Assembly: GCA_900074885.1 (NCBI GenBank)
Contig: FJUW01000082.1
Coordinates: 63,818 to 127,817, forward strand
DNA from: Rhynchosporium graminicola
Taxonomy: Eukaryota > Ascomycota > Leotiomycetes > Helotiales > Ploettnerulaceae
Reading direction: 5' to 3'
DNA: 64,000 nucleotides
The notes under the pieces are model-generated. The model was not told the origin of the DNA, did no database searches, and saw only the letters and a program-made list of their open reading frames with translations. This document shows, piece by piece, positions 9,301 to 16,114 of the stretch. Made by a program: the position numbers and the translations under genes. The first letter of the stretch is position 1, and the number at the start of each line of letters is the position of its first letter.

Positions 9301-10894
9301 TCTGAAGGCGTCTTGCGCGATGTGTTCTGGGGTGGAGGTCTGGGGTGAAATTTGCTAGTTGATGAGATAGATGAATTGGATAAAGGACATTTCTCGAGAG
9401 AGGCGAGATGGGATTTAACGGGGAGGGAAATTCTAATCGTTCATCTATCGTATGAGAGTCACCAACAGATATATTGCCAAGTTCAAATGAGCCAGAGACA
9501 CTGTATATTTGGTCTTAGTCCTCGGGAAGAGTAGATGGAATTAAATTCACTTGAGATGATATACCAAGAGAAATGGAATGGTGTGGTAGTCGTTTTAGAA
9601 TATAGATGTAATTACAAGCTAGACTTCGCAGGAATGGGAAATTATGGCTCTTGCATCCAGATAGTGAAGACGAGACTGCGTTGTGTGTAGCTTGAAGACA
9701 ATAGAGAGCCCGTCGGGAGTATACTTCAGTTGAGTATACTCACCGACTTGGCGATGGTTGATCACCTAGTTTCAAGAAGATCATAGGAAGTCTGGAAAAT
9801 CCTTCCCTGCACGTTCCATGGAAGAAATGAAAGATAGAAATGACAACAAACAAACACGTAATGGCGAGCAACATGTCATAGCTATGATTTCGGTGCAATG
9901 TCCTTTCAAAGAGCTACTTATTCCAAGTCTGTGAAGCCTATCGATTTGGGTCCGATTCAAAGGTTACTCTTTCTAACTATTGCTGAAACGATGATCACTG
10001 ACAGGTAGCACAAACCCTGATATTCTCTATTATATATACGCAAACGGTCGACAGAACCTCAACTCATTTTCAGAACTATTATTATCTAAACCTGTGTCTG
10101 TAAGAAAGGCAGAATGAAAATATGCAGCTGTCGTGTTTTAGCGTGATATTACAGTGGAGGATGTAGGAGTCCACTTCTCCAAGATCTGCTGCAAGGTTTA
10201 AACCTATGACCGATACTGCTAATAGTACAGTGATATAAAGACAAGCTTCAATCCAAAAATTGAAGACATTATAGAAGGCGAAGAAGTACACCTTGCTGTG
10301 TCGAAGAAGTGTTGGAACTGATTTTGTGTGACAAGTTTATCCTAGTTTCTGACAGATAGAACAAACAGGTAGACTTTTCCCAGAAACTGAGACACCGAGG
10401 TTTTGATTCCACGATACAAAATCCGTGATTCTCGCTGGAGGATTTAGAGATCGACTTCTCATTTATTCAATAAATAGCCTATGTCACGAAATGACGACAA
10501 GAAATAGTTCGAGGAAGAAGGGAGATGGAATGACGACTTGACCATCCTAACAGCAATTGTGATGAAGTGATCCTTCATACACTTTGAAAAGTATGATATG
10601 ATTCTGGAATCAATATCGAAATCATCAAAGGGCTGGGTATGTATCTTAAGCTCTTGGGGTATGTAATCGACGCTTCTCAGTCACAGCAAAACCATAGTGA
10701 TCGGCCCTCGACTGAATCATTGCGGAATTTGTGATTGCGCTTGAGAATTCGCCTGAACCCCTTGAACATTTCCTTATAAAAAGATTTCGATCTCTAAGTA
10801 ACGAACGTTTTCTAATCATGCAACGAACTCACGAGACCTCGATCCAAAAAAAGCAACTCACACCAAGCACAACCTCCACCCTTCAAACAAGGAA
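6389..10894. other. Long gene-poor interval
   Basis: About 4.5 kb without a gene that I can defend. All open frames are short (under 100 codons or nearly so), overlap others on the opposite strand and carry no motif. Small simple tracts are visible: GCCAGCCAGCC near 6,803 and 6,886, a CATCTCACATATGA word repeated at about 8,095-8,130, and a GACAGACAGACA run near 8,450. No tRNA or snRNA was recognised. Confidence 0.5.
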
Positions 10895-11122
10895 ATGGCG
10901 GGATCCTCAAAGAAAGTGCGGTGGATCTGCTGCGGTGATTTCGTAAGTACTTCGCAGAAAAGGGAGAGAGCTGTTTGGCTGACATATCCGCGTTGTGTAT
11001 AGTGCTTGAAACGAAATCGCATGTCATGGACCCACTGTTACAAATGCGGCCATAAGCGTTGTTCACAGAGATGCACGGTCGAAGGAGGTCGTAAGAAGAA
11101 AAGCGACTGTGTTATATTATGA
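10895..11122 (+). CDS. Mini RanBP2-like zinc-finger protein 1 with CaaX end (55 aa)
   Basis: Exons 10895-10942 and 11003-11122 flank a 60-bp phase-0 intron (GTAAGT donor, CTGAC branch site, TAG acceptor). The 55-residue product carries W10-I-C12-C13, then C17-x3-N21-x6-C28-x2-C31, which fits the RanBP2-type zinc-finger pattern (W-x-C-x2-4-C-x3-N-x6-C-x2-C). H33-x-R35-C36-x3-C40 follows. The tail is Lys/Arg-rich (GGRKKKSD) and ends CVIL, a CaaX box whose final Leu would predict geranylgeranylation. RanBP2-type fingers bind ubiquitin or single-stranded RNA in known proteins; which ligand applies here is unknown. This is the first of six tandem paralogues on the same strand. It is too short for automatic gene finders and could be missed. 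Zinc binding and prenylation are inferred from motifs only. Confidence 0.8.
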
Positions 11123-12231
11123 GTCCGAGGAACGAAGGGGGCTTTTACTGGTTAGGAATGGTAGGGGTGGAGAAGGCTTCTGTGTATAGTTAGCTTCTAT
11201 ACTGTCTGATCGATGCAATTCAACCACAACATGCCACTAAGAGATCTCGGCCAAGTCGTTGCAGATATTCAGACCTGGTTATATAGTAGGCCTCTCCGAG
11301 GATTTTTAGCTTGTATTCGAGCGTCGATTCGCTATTTTTTATTTTTTGCAGCAGAAGAGCAGGCTAGCTATCATCTGTAGCCTGTTATGCCACGAATGAC
11401 AACTAGAATCTGAGGAGCTTGCCTCTCAATACAAGCTCTCTTGCATTACTACAAGCCTTCTCTGATCTAACCTGCAAAGTCTAAAATGTCAGTATTAGGG
11501 CTTCCGTACCAGCTGTGTTGATGAAGTGTAATGTGGTGATTGCTGTTCAGACAGCTCTCTCCAAGCAGAGGAAGTGATGTTTACATGCATGACCATTTGA
11601 ACGATGACGGAACCTGGGAATAAATTGCATGATTTGACTTTGGCTTGAGGTTAACTCGCAGAGAAACTGTATAGACAAAAGGTTGGGAATGCTGGAATAG
11701 AGATGTTCGTCGATGCGAATCCAATTCTTCTCCGACGAAGCCAGACCTTTCGCGGGCTACCAAGGTATACAGCTATGAATTTAAAGTGATGACTCGATAT
11801 CGAAGTCGCGAAACTATTACAGATCATCATCTGAAGTCAAAGTCAAAGTCGGATGATTATTTGATGACTTTACCGGGTGAATGATTCGAGTCTTTTTTAT
11901 CTTTCCTGGAGATAAGTTTGCCCAAACTCACTTGAGAGATATCACAGAAGGGATCTGTTATTTTTCATTTTGACTCACTAGTAGAAGCATCGAATCCGGA
12001 ATATGCTCCAAGAGTCATAGGCAAACTGTGTATATATCAAGTCTGTGCTGCCGCCGAGGGCTTCTGAGATCTACCTTATTCTTCCAAGTCCAGAATTCAG
12101 CACCCACAAACCGAGTCTTGGGATCCAAACCCCAGATAATTACATCTACAGTACGCCAGAAGCAACCATCAAAAGCCAATAACGTCTAGATCTGAAATAA
12201 AAAACCATCCGAAAAAAATCTCAAGTCTCTT
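11123..12231. other. Spacer between paralogues 1 and 2
   Basis: About 1.1 kb with no supportable gene. It includes a T-rich tract near 11,330-11,350. It contains no zinc-finger exon that I could align with the flanking paralogues. Confidence 0.5.
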
Positions 12232-12483
12232 ATGGCTTACATGTCAAGGTGGACGTGCTCGTCTGTAAGTGATTTGTGCGACTGCTGCCTTGGATTAAAC
12301 AAATGTGAACTTCAGCTCTGGTCTAACGTTCTATCTGCTAAATAGTGTCGCAAAAGCAACTCCGCGAGCAAAAGAGTATGTGAACACTGTAGCCATGTAC
12401 GATGTAATGAATGTATGAGGTTGAATGGTATGCAACAGGGAGAGAAACCTAAGAAGAGGAAAAGTCGATGTGTAGTAAGCTAA
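12232..12483 (+). CDS. Mini RanBP2-like zinc-finger protein 2 with polybasic CaaX end (56 aa)
   Basis: Exons 12232-12264 and 12346-12483 flank an 81-bp phase-0 intron with a GTAAGT donor, a TCTAAC branch site and a TAG acceptor. The product has W7-T-C9-S-S-C12-x3-N16-x6-C23-x2-C26, an exact match to the RanBP2 zinc-finger pattern. H28-x-R30-C31-x2-C34 follows, as in its neighbours. The C-terminus is KPKKRKSR followed by CVVS. A polybasic run directly before a CaaX box is the arrangement that holds K-Ras-like proteins at the plasma membrane; the terminal Ser would favour farnesylation. The first exon is only 11 codons, and its last two positions are Ser where paralogue 1 has a second Cys. Function is unknown; a membrane-tethered binding module is the inference. 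Confidence 0.82.
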
Positions 12484-12978
12484 ATGCTGCAATATTATGA
12501 AAATGTACGGGCGGATCGTATATTAGGTATTTGTAGACTTGTGAAGACATGTGATAAGGCTCAAGGAACTGTTCTGTGGAGTTTATTTTTATTCTTTGGA
12601 TTTTTGCTATTCAACGAAGCTTTACGAACACAGAGTATACGTACTGCTTTCTAGCTTCTGCTTCATCGTTTGCAGAATTCAAGATTATGATACATGTTCC
12701 GACAGATATGCGTTGAACGAACATACGGTTTATGTAGTGATTTACAGGTGATGTAATTAACTTCTGAGTGTGCACAAAGAATTGGATTGCTGTACCTGTA
12801 TAGAAAAGTGTGATGTATTTGCGAGTATCTTTCTCTATCTTCTAGGTCCGTATCCAGACACCAGACTCCGAACTCCTGTTTCCATTACCACGAATACAAC
12901 AAACCTCTCGCCAAGCCAAACCAAACCAACTCAAAACTGAAGGAAAAGACTCATCTTAAACAAAAATCTTCGTCTCTA

Positions 12979-13224
12979 ATGGGTCGCCAGGGCAGGTTAG
13001 AATTAAGTGACACATTGTAAAGCGATCTGTTCATTGATCCCCCTCGGACGAACCCGTACAAAATGAAATCCGTACACTTTTTTACTTGTTCTTAGTGCAA
13101 AATGATGAGATCCTCATTCAGGATCTTCTGTGAAGGACGCAATCATCTACCGTGCCGAAAATGCCCAATTTTGATGGGGGCCAGCCGAGTTTGTAACCTA
13201 AGCCTGAGAAAGAAAAGGAAGTAA
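12979..13224 (+). pseudogene. Mini zinc-finger paralogue 3, degenerate
   Basis: The second exon is recognisable at 13096-13224, after a TTAG acceptor. It starts with the conserved Cys codon and keeps the 23-residue spacing of the family (C1, C12, H17, C20, C23). Position 15, a Cys ligand in the sound copies, is Arg, and position 19 (Arg) is Pro. The matching first exon should begin at the ATG at 12979, but that frame lacks the W-x-C motif and runs to a stop; a GTAAAG donor near 13016 is in a phase that does not fit. The C-terminus stops at RKKRK, so the CaaX box is gone. Both ligand loss and tail truncation point to a pseudogene; expression as a changed protein cannot be excluded. Confidence 0.65.
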
Positions 13225-13987
13225 ATCTAATCAGCTGGAGATTAATGTATGGTTCGTGTATTAGGTCTAATGCCGATGACTGCTTCATTGCAAAGGCAGT
13301 CAAGTTTCAACTCGGGGGAGGCGATTTTGCAAGCTCATTGGAAAACCATCATCCAAGAACATGACTTGCAGTAAAGTGATCAAAAGCTTATATGGGTTTG
13401 AACTATTAATTTATGTACTATCGTGAGACATATTGATAATATTGAAGTCGAGTTGCGATTGTCAAACAAGACCTACCATTGGCATGCTTTCACCTTCGCC
13501 GAAGACGAATTTAATGACGAAGGAAGTCGAGGTTAGCACTCTGAAACAGAAGTCTAGTAATCTGGATTGAAGCAAGGATCTGCTATTTTAGGGTCTTTGC
13601 TACTTATTGAAGCTTTAAACCCGCAGGGTAGCGTCATCCAGACCATACTTGGATCATATCCAGGAGGTGTGATTGTTATAGATCTTCCGAAAAGACCTTA
13701 CTGGAGAACAACTGGCTGCTGACTGATTCCCATACCAAGATAATGAATTTGGGGTGTGCTAAAAGTACCATGAATGCCGTATATAAATAAATACTGTATG
13801 GACTATTTCTCAACTTTCGTCCTTGATTTCCACGTCAAGAATCTGCATTCCAGATAACGACGTTCTTCAAACTTCGACCTGCACACCCACAAGTACACTA
13901 AAATAATCGCCGAGAAGAGTACACATCTCCAACCCGAAGCTGACCTTAGTGTTAGCATACCATTCTTATCTAACCCATCTAAGGAGG
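13225..13987. other. Spacer between paralogues 3 and 4
   Basis: About 760 bp. I see no gene, no extra zinc-finger exon and no structural RNA. Confidence 0.5.
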
Positions 13988-14248
13988 ATGTCAACGTGGT
14001 TATGCTGCAAGGCTCGGGGCCCTGAAGACGATAGAGCAGTAAGCTACCCCTAATTCCCCTTTCCTATAAAGGACACGGAAAGTGCCGAGCTAAAACGTAT
14101 GTTAATTGTATCTTAGTGCCAAAAAGAGAACACTCGGGCCAATAGGCAGTGTCAGAAATGCTGGCATTGGCGTTGTGGGCAGTGCTATAAGAAGTACGAC
14201 AGGGACGATGAAGCATTGTGTGACAAGTTCACGTGTATCATGAGCTGA
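13988..14248 (+). CDS. Mini RanBP2-like zinc-finger protein 4 with CaaX end (60 aa)
   Basis: Exons 13988-14038 and 14117-14248 flank a 78-bp phase-0 intron (GTAAGC donor, TTAG acceptor). W4-L-C6-C7 in exon 1 is followed by an acidic 10-residue insert, then exon 2 opens with C18-x3-N22-x6-C29-x2-C32-x-H34-x-R36-C37-x2-C40. The gap between the W-x-C-C part and C18 is longer than the RanBP2 consensus allows, so the first knuckle may be formed differently. The tail is DKFT-CIMS, a CaaX box with Met in the last a position and a terminal Ser. There is no polybasic run, unlike paralogue 2. All ligands are present and the frame is clean, so I take it as functional. Confidence 0.8.
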
Positions 14249-14591
14249 ATCGCGGAATCCTGGGATCCACTGCTCCTGGAGAGTCTGTGGTCGGTCATCT
14301 CGATATTGAAGTCACAGAGATTGATAGGAGTATGATTTAGGGGAAGAATCTGACTAGACTTTGTGTCATTTATCGAAGATTTATAATCACAGCAACACTC
14401 TTCCGCATTTGCATGAATGATTCACATGAAATTTGACTTTGCATAATGCCAATGACTATTACAATCTCTAATATATAATAAGTGGTGAACATCCGTAGCG
14501 GACCTAACACACTGAAACTGCCACGATCTCATCATCTCACTAAGCCCAATCTGAGCACTTCAATCAAGTCACTGCAACTTCCAAGAGAAAA

Positions 14592-14859
14592 ATGACAAAT
14601 TGGCTGTGCTGCTCGATGATTCCGATTCTTCCACACCTCGGAAGCTCACCTGTAAATAATCCCTCAGCCGCTATCCCCTAAATCCTCGAATGGATTTTTC
14701 GCCTGGTCATCTTCTAATTATTCCTAGTGCGTGAAGACAACAAATGATATCCTAAAGAATTTCGTACTCTGAGGTCACAGAAGATGTTGGAAGTGTGTTG
14801 GATTTTATGGTGAGAGACCGGATATCAATTTCGAGAAATGTCGGTGTATTATAAGCTAA
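14592..14859 (+). pseudogene. Mini zinc-finger paralogue 5, one in-frame stop
   Basis: Exons 14592-14651 and 14728-14859 flank a 76-bp phase-0 intron (GTAAAT donor, CCTAG acceptor). Exon 1 keeps W4-L-C6-C7. In exon 2 the column that is Cys in every sound copy (position 12 of the exon) is Phe (TTC), and the next ligand (position 15) is a TGA stop. The downstream part remains well conserved: H17, R19-C20, C23, then a tail ending CRCIIS, i.e. a CIIS CaaX box. Two of the four expected zinc ligands are therefore lost in adjacent conserved columns while the rest looks young. The simplest reading is recent pseudogenisation; a sequencing error at the TGA alone would not restore the Phe. Confidence 0.72.
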
Positions 14860-15216
14860 GAGTGGGGTTTGTATGATGCTGAGCTCAGTGGCCCTGTGGA
14901 TAGTTGATGATCGAGCGTAATTTTTGTACTCATAGCGAGCTGTAGGAACCTGAGCTGGGCAAGGCATCTGTATTATGAGGCTTAACGCTATTCCATGAAT
15001 GTTTTACAAAAATAGAGCAGAATCATTTTGCACCTAATGGAGTCATTTTCGGAGGGTGTGATTGTGATCGATATCGACACCGATATCGTAGAGGTATTAA
15101 TATATATTCGGACCTCATCTTCTGAATTATCTTTATCACGCCAAAGCTGAAAGAATTCACCAGACCGACAATAATCCAGCCAAAACCTACTACGACGCAC
15201 AAATCATCATAACAAA

Positions 15217-15573
15217 ATGTCCACCACCAGTCGAAGCCCACCCGCCCACCTGCAAGACTTCGATAGCCCCCACTGGCTCTGTTGTAAGACACCCCCAAAT
15301 GCTGTGTGTGAATCACCTGTAAGTATCCGTCTTCTTCAGATGAGCATCGCACACACAAGGAGAGACAATGCCGGCTAAGATATACTTCTTCTATAGTGCT
15401 TAAAACATAATCCGCTGGACAAGAAGATTTGCGAGAGGTGTCAACATGTGCGATGCGAGGAGTGCATGACTCATGATGGCTCAGAAGAGGATCTGTGTGA
15501 TCCAAATCCAAAAAGCTCAGGCATACGTGTGGGAGTTATTGACTGGCTTCTGAGGGAGATAACCTGGTTGTGA
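15217..15573 (+). CDS. Mini RanBP2-like zinc-finger protein 6, extended ends (92 aa)
   Basis: Exons 15217-15318 and 15397-15573 flank a 78-bp phase-0 intron (GTAAGT donor, CTAAG element, TAG acceptor). Exon 1 is longer than in its paralogues: about 19 extra residues precede H-W20-L-C22-C23, and a further Cys (C31) lies four residues before the junction. Exon 2 gives C35-x3-N39-x6-C46-x2-C49-x-H51-x-R53-C54-x2-C57. The C-terminus does not end in a CaaX box. It runs on through a hydrophobic VGVIDWLLREITWL end, which could be an amphipathic membrane-binding helix replacing the lipid anchor. All zinc ligands are present and the frame is open, so it is probably functional. Confidence 0.78.
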
Positions 15574-15922
15574 AGCTATAGAGGGGCTGCGTGGTTGGTA
15601 AAATAATGTACAATTAGCTTTTCGAGACATGCAAATCGATGCTTTACAATCACAGCAACAGGCCTTCATAGCCATTAGAATCATTTGCAGATATCGTACT
15701 GTGACTGGGACAGGAACTGGGAAACACCAGCATATATAATATAAGTACCCTTCGTCCCACTGAGAGTCCTCCCTAGCGAAATCATTCTGCCTACTTCGCG
15801 AACTCCTCGGAAAGAAAACACCGAAACCACTTATAACCCTTTTCGGTTCCTCAGCGACATCCGTATCCCAACACATCATTTCCGAGTCGTCTACCCCGAC
15901 TTCATTAACAGCCGCTGCAACG

Positions 15923-16114
15923 ATGAAGCGCAATGCATTAGTCGCCGTCGTGGTAGTCTTCTTGGTCCTCGTAATCGGATGTGTAGGTTTCTACGCGTGT
16001 GCGATGACCTGGAATACGCCGAAGCGCCTTCCTCGCCGAGTAAGCACCATAGACGATGGAGGAGAAGCAGGAGCAACGCCGCGGAGTGGACCAGAGCCAG
16101 AACAAGTACCTTAG
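15923..16114 (+). CDS. Small single-pass membrane protein, 63 aa
   Basis: The ORF starts with MKRNALV and continues into a hydrophobic stretch of about 20 residues (roughly residues 5-26, VAVVVVFLVLVIG-like). A short basic segment follows (PKRLPRR, about 33-39), then a Gly/Pro/Glu-rich hydrophilic tail. This is the profile of a type II or tail-out single-span protein, or of an uncleaved signal anchor. There are no domain hits that I can name. It lies 350 bp after zinc-finger paralogue 6 on the same strand. With only 63 codons a chance ORF is possible, but the clean hydrophobic core, basic flank and acceptable start context favour a real gene. Confidence 0.5.
   Translation: MKRNALVAVVVVFLVLVIGCVGFYACAMTWNTPKRLPRRVSTIDDGGEAGATPRSGPEPEQVP

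What the first reader, a model, noticed from the sequence alone, without database searches (positions are those of the whole stretch)
10895..15573. Tandem family of tiny RanBP2-like zinc-finger proteins ending in CaaX prenylation boxes
Six paralogues lie in 4.7 kb on one strand. The sound copies share W-x-C-C, then C-x3-N-x6-C-x2-C (the RanBP2 zinc-finger spacing), then x-H-x-R-C-x2/3-C. Four of the six end in a CaaX box at the very last four codons: CVIL, CVVS, CIMS and, in a broken copy, CIIS; in two of them a Lys/Arg run precedes it. A 55-60 residue protein that is only a zinc finger plus a lipid anchor suggests a membrane-tethered binding module (ubiquitin or RNA in known RanBP2 fingers). 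I know of no described family with this design. Motif matches are seen directly; prenylation and membrane location are inferred.
Basis: partly seen in the sequence, partly recalled or inferred. Interest (0 to 1): 0.92.

Follow-up and report, generated by a model that had tools for sequence, protein, structure and literature searches.

The report
Tiny fungal fingers with lipid-anchor ends
A fungus, likely of the barley-scald genus Rhynchosporium, carries a row of six small gene copies (four intact, two broken) whose predicted proteins are little more than a finger likely to bind zinc plus, in three intact copies and one broken one, a CaaX tag in the last four residues that would be lipid-modified and so likely ties the finger to a membrane.

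Summary
Six tandem paralogues lie on one strand: four sound two-exon copies (55, 56, 60, 92 aa), one broken by an in-frame TGA, one remnant. Introns in the five modelled copies are phase 0, directly before a Cys codon; an annotated Rhynchosporium secalis protein runs across the same junction in copy 6. All four strict CaaX ends in the stretch belong to array members (CVIL, CVVS, CIMS; CIIS in the broken copy); chance gives about 2e-12 for 4 of 6. The copies are old: third codon positions of the finger agree 29-50% and linkers align no better than shuffles, yet CaaX and finger residues stay. That argues for selection on the anchor.

The RanBP2 label is not supported: the full pattern fits 2 of 4 copies, Pfam gives one sub-threshold match, and all four carry a further H-x2-C-x2/3-C. 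A two-finger gene elsewhere in the genome shares outline and intron position with other spacing. The array looks like a branch of fungal W-x-C-C fingers that gained a prenylation tail. Expression, zinc and prenylation are untested. Best reading: membrane-tethered mini zinc fingers, like plant HIPPs in design, not descent.

The parts
10895..11122 (+). copy 1 (c1), exons 10895-10942 and 11003-11122, intron 10943-11002 (60 nt); 55 aa, WICC...|C..N..C..C.H.RC...C, ends GGRKKKSDCVIL; CaaX codons 11108-11119
12232..12483 (+). copy 2 (c2), exons 12232-12264 and 12346-12483, intron 81 nt; 56 aa, the only copy with a Pfam RanBP match (below cut-off); ends KPKKRKSRCVVS; CaaX codons 12469-12480
13096..13224 (+). 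copy 3 (c3), remnant of an exon 2 after a TTAG acceptor: C-x10-C kept, second Cys of C-x2-C and the Arg of H-x-R lost, no W-x-C-C exon found upstream, ends LRKKRK without CaaX
13988..14248 (+). copy 4 (c4), exons 13988-14038 and 14117-14248, intron 78 nt; 60 aa, ends LCDKFTCIMS; CaaX codons 14234-14245
14592..14859 (+). copy 5 (c5), broken: exons 14592-14651 and 14728-14859 with an in-frame TGA at 14770-14772 at a ligand Cys position; the frame after it ends CRCIIS; CaaX codons 14845-14856
15217..15573 (+). copy 6 (c6), exons 15217-15318 and 15397-15573, intron 78 nt; 92 aa, no CaaX, hydrophobic end VGVIDWLLREITWL; counterpart of R. secalis RSE6_01975 (86 of 92 residues identical, sequence runs across the same exon junction)
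10775..10781 (+). TATAWAW box 120 nt before the c1 ATG; each of the 5 copies with a modelled exon 1 has one within 300 nt (c2 -201, c4 -208, c5 -120, c6 -116)
   Evidence: 30 such sites in window 1-28000 on the + strand, 0.32 per 300 nt

Best explanation
The predicted two-exon genes of this array encode tiny proteins made of one Cys/His finger, likely to bind zinc, followed in three intact copies and one broken copy by a C-terminal CaaX box that is likely prenylated and would tether the finger to a cell membrane. Working model: farnesyltransferase (X = Ser: c2, c4) or geranylgeranyltransferase I (X = Leu: c1) would modify the last Cys, and a second signal (Lys/Arg run in c1 and c2, an extra Cys in c4) would direct the product to the plasma or an inner membrane, where the finger would serve as a binding or metal-holding module. 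The finger most likely belongs with fungal W-x-C-C / C-x2-C-x-H-x2-C-x2-C fingers, which offer seven or more possible ligands, rather than with RanBP2. Copy 6 has no box and ends in a hydrophobic stretch; copies 3 and 5 are broken. Shown: gene anatomy, CaaX ends, old divergence with kept motifs. Inferred: splicing, expression, zinc, lipid, membrane, function.
For: All four strict CaaX ends in the stretch are array members; 4 of 6 copies carry one, about 2e-12 by the contig's base rate under independence, 4e-9 for 3 of 6 if broken c5 is left out. Common descent alone is a poor explanation: third codon positions of the finger agree 0.29-0.50 in 6 pairs and linkers have z -1.2 to 0.5 against shuffles; in a neutral simulation (one start sequence, equal rates, star tree) 0.5 changes per site and lineage leave all four boxes intact with probability 2.5e-7. 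Eight exon-2 columns are invariant over 4 copies. Introns: 5 of 5 modelled, GT-AG, phase 0, before TGC/TGT; the annotated R. secalis protein runs across the c6 junction. TATA-like box within 300 nt upstream in 5 of 5 modelled copies. Kin: C96 two-finger gene with the same intron place in both fingers.
Against: No transcript data. Two of six copies are broken and c6 lacks the box; its R. secalis counterpart has lost a possible ligand (C57R), so constraint is weak at least there. No counterpart of c1, c2 or c4 was found in a set of 5.8 billion proteins; c2 was searched alone, c1 and c4 only as rows of a four-row alignment with capped words, and proteins this short are often not annotated. Some flank similarity survives between c1 and c6 (upstream z 5.2, intron 3.9, downstream 3.4), so not every pair is saturated. 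A CTRAY branch site within 30 nt of the acceptor is present in 3 of 5 introns. The one structure model had mean pLDDT 45.8 and was not used.
Confidence: 0.62

Rival explanations
1. Decaying array: once-working finger genes, now drifting, whose CaaX ends are leftovers.
For: c3 and c5 are broken, c6 has no box, and R. secalis c6 has lost a possible ligand Cys; only one protein of the family was found in the protein set.
Against: c1, c2 and c4 keep frame, splice signals, the finger residues and CaaX at distances where third codon positions are mostly near random.
Confidence: 0.15
2. True RanBP2-type fingers on a lipid anchor, binding ubiquitin or RNA at a membrane.
For: c1 and c2 fit the full RanBP2 expression; c2 scores E 5.4e-4 to PF00641 and E 0.0035 to the MDM4 finger 2cr8.
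Against: Below Pfam's cut-off; c1, c4, c6 no match; profile of four copies to MDM4 only E 0.26; extra H-x2-C-x2/3-C in every sound copy; C96 kin with other spacing.
Confidence: 0.12
3. Lipopeptide mating-pheromone (a-factor-like) precursors: the finger part would be cut off and a short prenylated peptide exported.
For: The putative Leotiomycete a-factor is tiny, CaaX-ended and not annotated in most genomes; R. commune was reported to have 5 annotated proteins of at most 100 aa with such ends (PMC10569646, section 21 read).
Against: That paper's candidate is a different protein, 45-64 aa, Ser/Thr-rich, usually with a Gly-Tyr motif and most often ending CTVM; here the conserved part is the finger, while the residues before the box differ in every copy. 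I could not read its list of CaaX proteins.
Confidence: 0.05
4. Proteins delivered into the plant host and prenylated there.
For: The likely genus is a plant pathogen; the genes are short and Cys-rich, and the one relative found is from that genus.
Against: No signal-peptide-like start in the four sound copies by eye; no prediction program was run.
Confidence: 0.04

Closest known systems
[quoted passage not shown]
   Same: Metal-binding domain plus an isoprenylation site, in expanded families (PMC10459601 abstract; PMC7504674 start of abstract in the listing).
   Different: HIPPs are described as unique to vascular plants and have heavy-metal-associated domains; here a Cys/His finger in a fungus. 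Same design, no kinship shown.
RanBP2-type zinc finger (PF00641), MDM4 finger
   Same: C-x3-N-x6-C-x2-C in 4 of 4 sound copies, full pattern in c1 and c2.
   Different: Below the curated cut-off in c2, no match in the others; additional H-x2-C-x2/3-C; no lipid anchor in known members (recalled).
Dispersed W-x-C-C / C-x2-C-x-H-x2-C-x2-C finger genes, such as the two-finger gene at C96:229310-229725 of the same genome
   Same: W-x-C-C, phase-0 intron directly before the next Cys, C-x2-C-x-H-x2-C-x2-C.
   Different: Two fingers, loop lengths not RanBP2-like, ends FDAN without CaaX; no Pfam match. Similarity to the array profile is weak: E 0.025 in a small set of frames.
Zinc finger antiviral protein, long form (ZAP-L)
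   Same: Zinc fingers made membrane-associated by a farnesylated CaaX box that is needed for activity (PMC8568172 abstract).
   Different: Large multidomain vertebrate protein with CCCH fingers and a PARP domain.
Leotiomycete putative a-factor pheromone precursor
   Same: Tiny, CaaX-ended, mostly unannotated (PMC10569646 section 21).
   Different: Ser/Thr-rich, usually with a Gly-Tyr motif, no finger reported, found in at least 111 species.

Membership tests
RanBP2-type zinc finger (PF00641) | W-x-C-x2-4-C-x3-N-x6-C-x2-C | tested here: inconclusive
   Full pattern in 2 of 4 sound copies (c1, c2), not in c4, c6.
RanBP2-type zinc finger (PF00641) | Score over Pfam's curated cut-off (27 bits) | tested here: not met
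   c2 19.6 bits; c1, c4, c6 none; no array match among 4 genome hits.
RanBP2-type zinc finger (PF00641) | Single zinc held by four Cys (recalled) | not testable with these tools
   The model of the R. secalis c6 protein had mean pLDDT 45.8.
Fungal W-x-C-C / C-x2-C-x-H-x2-C-x2-C fingers (my working group, no curated model) | W-x-C-C then C, C-x2-C-x-H-x2-C-x2-C | tested here: inconclusive
   In full in c4 and c6; c1 ends C-x3-C; c2 lacks the second Cys of W-x-C-C. The array's finger profile scores kin frames weakly: L039 E 9e-4, L041 0.004, L042 0.009, L043 0.025, in a small set chosen by motif.
Fungal W-x-C-C / C-x2-C-x-H-x2-C-x2-C fingers (my working group, no curated model) | Phase-0 intron directly before the Cys that follows W-x-C-C | tested here: met
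   5 of 5 modelled array copies and both fingers of the C96 gene; the C58 gene read by eye has its intron elsewhere.
CaaX-prenylated proteins | C-a-a-X as the last four residues | tested here: met
   3 of 4 sound copies, plus c5 after its stop; not c6, not c3.
CaaX-prenylated proteins | Lipid on the Cys and membrane location | not testable with these tools
   Needs labelling or microscopy.
Leotiomycete a-factor precursor | Ser/Thr-rich N-terminus and Gly-Tyr motif before the CaaX | tested here: not met
   Absent by eye from c1, c2, c4 against the description in PMC10569646.

The most novel reading that the evidence does not exclude
Fungi have their own HIPP-like class: prenylated mini zinc-finger proteins of 55-60 residues, carried as an old, overlooked array whose copies are split between farnesyl and geranylgeranyl anchors and between basic-run and second-cysteine targeting signals, so that one finger design is set out on several membranes.
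Probability: 0.42. Interest if true: 0.7.

Novelty: new variant of a known kind. Interest (0 to 1): 0.52.

Why it matters
Proteins under about 60 residues with an intron are easily missed by gene predictors. This array suggests that some are old and kept under selection, with a recognisable design of finger plus lipid tag. If confirmed it adds a fungal counterpart to plant HIPPs and a handy minimal model for how a CaaX box and its second signal place a small metal-binding module.

Tried and rejected
Protein searches: c2 alone, no candidate; four-copy alignment, 1 hit of 11 candidates; c6 with two short kin motifs, 1 hit of 1 candidate, the same R. secalis protein. So there is no view of the CaaX in other species. 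Genome searches with exon-2 peptides of c1, c2, c4, c6 found only array members. AlphaFold on the R. secalis protein with window exons: mean pLDDT 45.8, so no fold search was made; a first alignment for it had a misplaced c4 exon-1 row, which I dropped. The 5.8S search, meant to name the species, gave one weak match. NCBIfam gave nothing above a curated cut-off. A frame at window 22520 on the minus strand in the finger profile (E 0.032) reads without the motif: rejected. The 105, 257 and 184 base identities are overlapping extracts, not repeats. The Rhynchosporium gene MAT1-1-13 (90 aa, 330 bp, two exons, PMC10569646 section 14) was considered as the same as c6; c6 is 92 aa over 357 bp, and the MAT1-1-13 sequence was not seen. 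Literature: CaaX and zinc finger combined with fungal or membrane terms gave 0, 2, 0, 0 and 0 papers, the 2 being a pheromone paper (PMC3068285, passages seen) and PMC11611257 (listing only); Rhynchosporium commune with effector and isoprenylation gave 0. These searches cover open-licence full texts alone.
Full report
What is there. The window lies in contig C76 (130,688 bases) of a 55.3 Mb genome of 121 contigs. Six related gene copies sit on the + strand between 10895 and 15573. I rebuilt them by hand from the DNA. Four are sound with two exons: c1 55 aa, c2 56 aa, c4 60 aa, c6 92 aa. c5 is broken by a TGA at a ligand position and also has Phe at the other Cys of that pair; c3 is a remnant. 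Introns of 60, 81, 78, 76 and 78 nt in c1, c2, c4, c5 and c6 run GT to AG, are phase 0 and end directly before a Cys codon. A CTRAY branch site within 30 nt of the acceptor was seen in c1, c2 and c5, not in c4 or c6. Each of these five copies has a TATAWAW box within 300 nt before its ATG, against 0.32 per 300 nt over window 1-28000, + strand.

Which organism. One protein in a set of 5.8 billion matched the family: RSE6_01975 of Rhynchosporium secalis, 92 aa (again). It equals c6 in 86 of 92 residues, so the window is from a close relative or another isolate. The protein runs straight across c6's exon junction, an independent gene model in support of that splice. Genome size is nearest to R. 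commune UK7, 55.59 Mb in 163 scaffolds (PMC5118889, passages seen); the species is not proven. The differences are P26T, C57R, D61G, D66G, D83N and T90I; C57R removes a possible ligand of the finger in R. secalis.

The CaaX ends are beyond chance. c1 ends CVIL, c2 CVVS, c4 CIMS, and c5 CIIS after its stop. In the 4.7 kb stretch 468 stops occur over six frames; 4 follow a strict CaaX and all 4 are these (6 with a looser set). The contig rate is 10 of 16,854 including them, so 4 of 6 by independent chance would be about 2e-12, and 3 of 6 about 4e-9. Shuffling the tails of the six copies gives 0.0004 to 0.0019 each. Since the copies are related, descent must be weighed too. The finger's third codon positions agree 0.29, 0.46, 0.33, 0.29, 0.29 and 0.50 in the six pairs, linkers score z -1.2 to 0.5 against shuffles, and introns z -1.1 to 3.9. 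The mean of the third positions corresponds to about 1.4 changes per site between pairs. In a neutral simulation (one start sequence, equal rates, independent lineages) all four boxes survive with probability 0.001 at 0.2 changes per site and lineage and 2.5e-7 at 0.5. So the box has most likely been kept by selection, at least until recently. Against full saturation: c1 and c6 retain upstream, intron and downstream similarity (z 5.2, 3.9, 3.4).

What the finger is. c1 and c2 fit the full RanBP2 expression, c4 and c6 do not. PF00641 gives 19.6 bits for c2 against a cut-off of 27, and nothing for c1, c4, c6. The best solved relative of c2 is the MDM4 finger at E 0.0035; with the four-copy profile it falls to 0.26. 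The sound copies go on with H-x2-C-x2-C, or x3 in c1. The pattern C-x2-C-x-H-x-R-C occurs 35 times in the genome against 5 for the reversed control. I read 30 of the 35 as loci and 4 more in fetched stretches; 4 of the 35 are the array's own, and by eye most of the rest are frames without a finger, so only a few are kin. The clearest by gene structure is at C96:229725-229310, minus strand, with introns of 60 and 50 nt, two fingers WVCCK|C...CADCRHESCAQC and WICCN|C...CGKCKHDECEGC, and in each a phase-0 intron directly before the Cys. It ends FDAN. C58 has another gene with two such fingers and HWYCC, its intron elsewhere by eye. Sequence similarity to these is weak: the array profile scores L039 E 9e-4, L041 0.004, L042 (C58) 0.009 and L043 (C96) 0.025 in a small set of frames chosen by motif. 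I therefore read the array as a one-finger branch of this group, as an inference; RanBP2 likeness in c1 and c2 may be chance within a variable loop. Exon-2 searches found no close paralogue outside the array.

How it would work. The last Cys would be prenylated, by geranylgeranyltransferase I for CVIL and farnesyltransferase for CVVS and CIMS (rules recalled). c1 and c2 have a Lys/Arg run before the box, as in K-Ras; c4 and c5 have another Cys close to it, as in H-Ras or N-Ras, which might be palmitoylated (recalled comparison). The finger would then stand at the membrane as a binding or metal-holding module. Such a pairing is known: HIPPs join heavy metal-binding domains to an isoprenylation site (PMC10459601 abstract), and ZAP-L needs its farnesylated CaaX box for membrane association and activity (PMC8568172 abstract). 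What the fungal finger binds is open.

Rivals and limits. A decaying array is possible given c3, c5 and the C57R change. Pheromone precursors are unlikely: the published Leotiomycete candidate is Ser/Thr-rich, usually with Gly-Tyr, and most often ends CTVM (PMC10569646 section 21). No expression data, no relatives of c1, c2 or c4, and no usable structure model (mean pLDDT 45.8) were at hand.

Noticed in passing
window 15923-16114, +: A small ORF of about 63 aa shortly after copy 6, MKRNALVAVVVVFLVLVIGCVGFYACAM..., with one membrane span by eye; no Pfam match over cut-off.
   Followed up: partly
window 28000-64000: G+C falls from 0.40-0.45 to 0.26-0.36, an AT-rich block such as repeat-induced mutation could make; the array ends about 12 kb before it.
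   Followed up: no
C96:229310-229725 (L043): Unnamed two-finger gene with the same intron before a Cys in both fingers, no Pfam match.
   Followed up: partly
C116:861650-861937 (L039): Long frame with repeated C-x2-C ... C-x2-C-x-H-x-R-C-x2-CPR-like units, another finger type.
   Followed up: no
C76:27433-29016, minus (L048): 528 aa frame with WFFCCKCGNG ... CRRCYPNG, a W-x-C-C type motif on the same contig about 46 kb before the array.
   Followed up: no
C76:57789-58520 (L044): Piece of a likely chitinase: chitin-binding domain at its Pfam cut-off, glycosyl hydrolase 18 below it.
   Followed up: no
window 10666-10691, 14372-14397, 15635-15660: A 26 nt piece shared by three stretches outside the coding parts (73-88% to the reference copy); may be chance or a duplication trace.
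   Followed up: no
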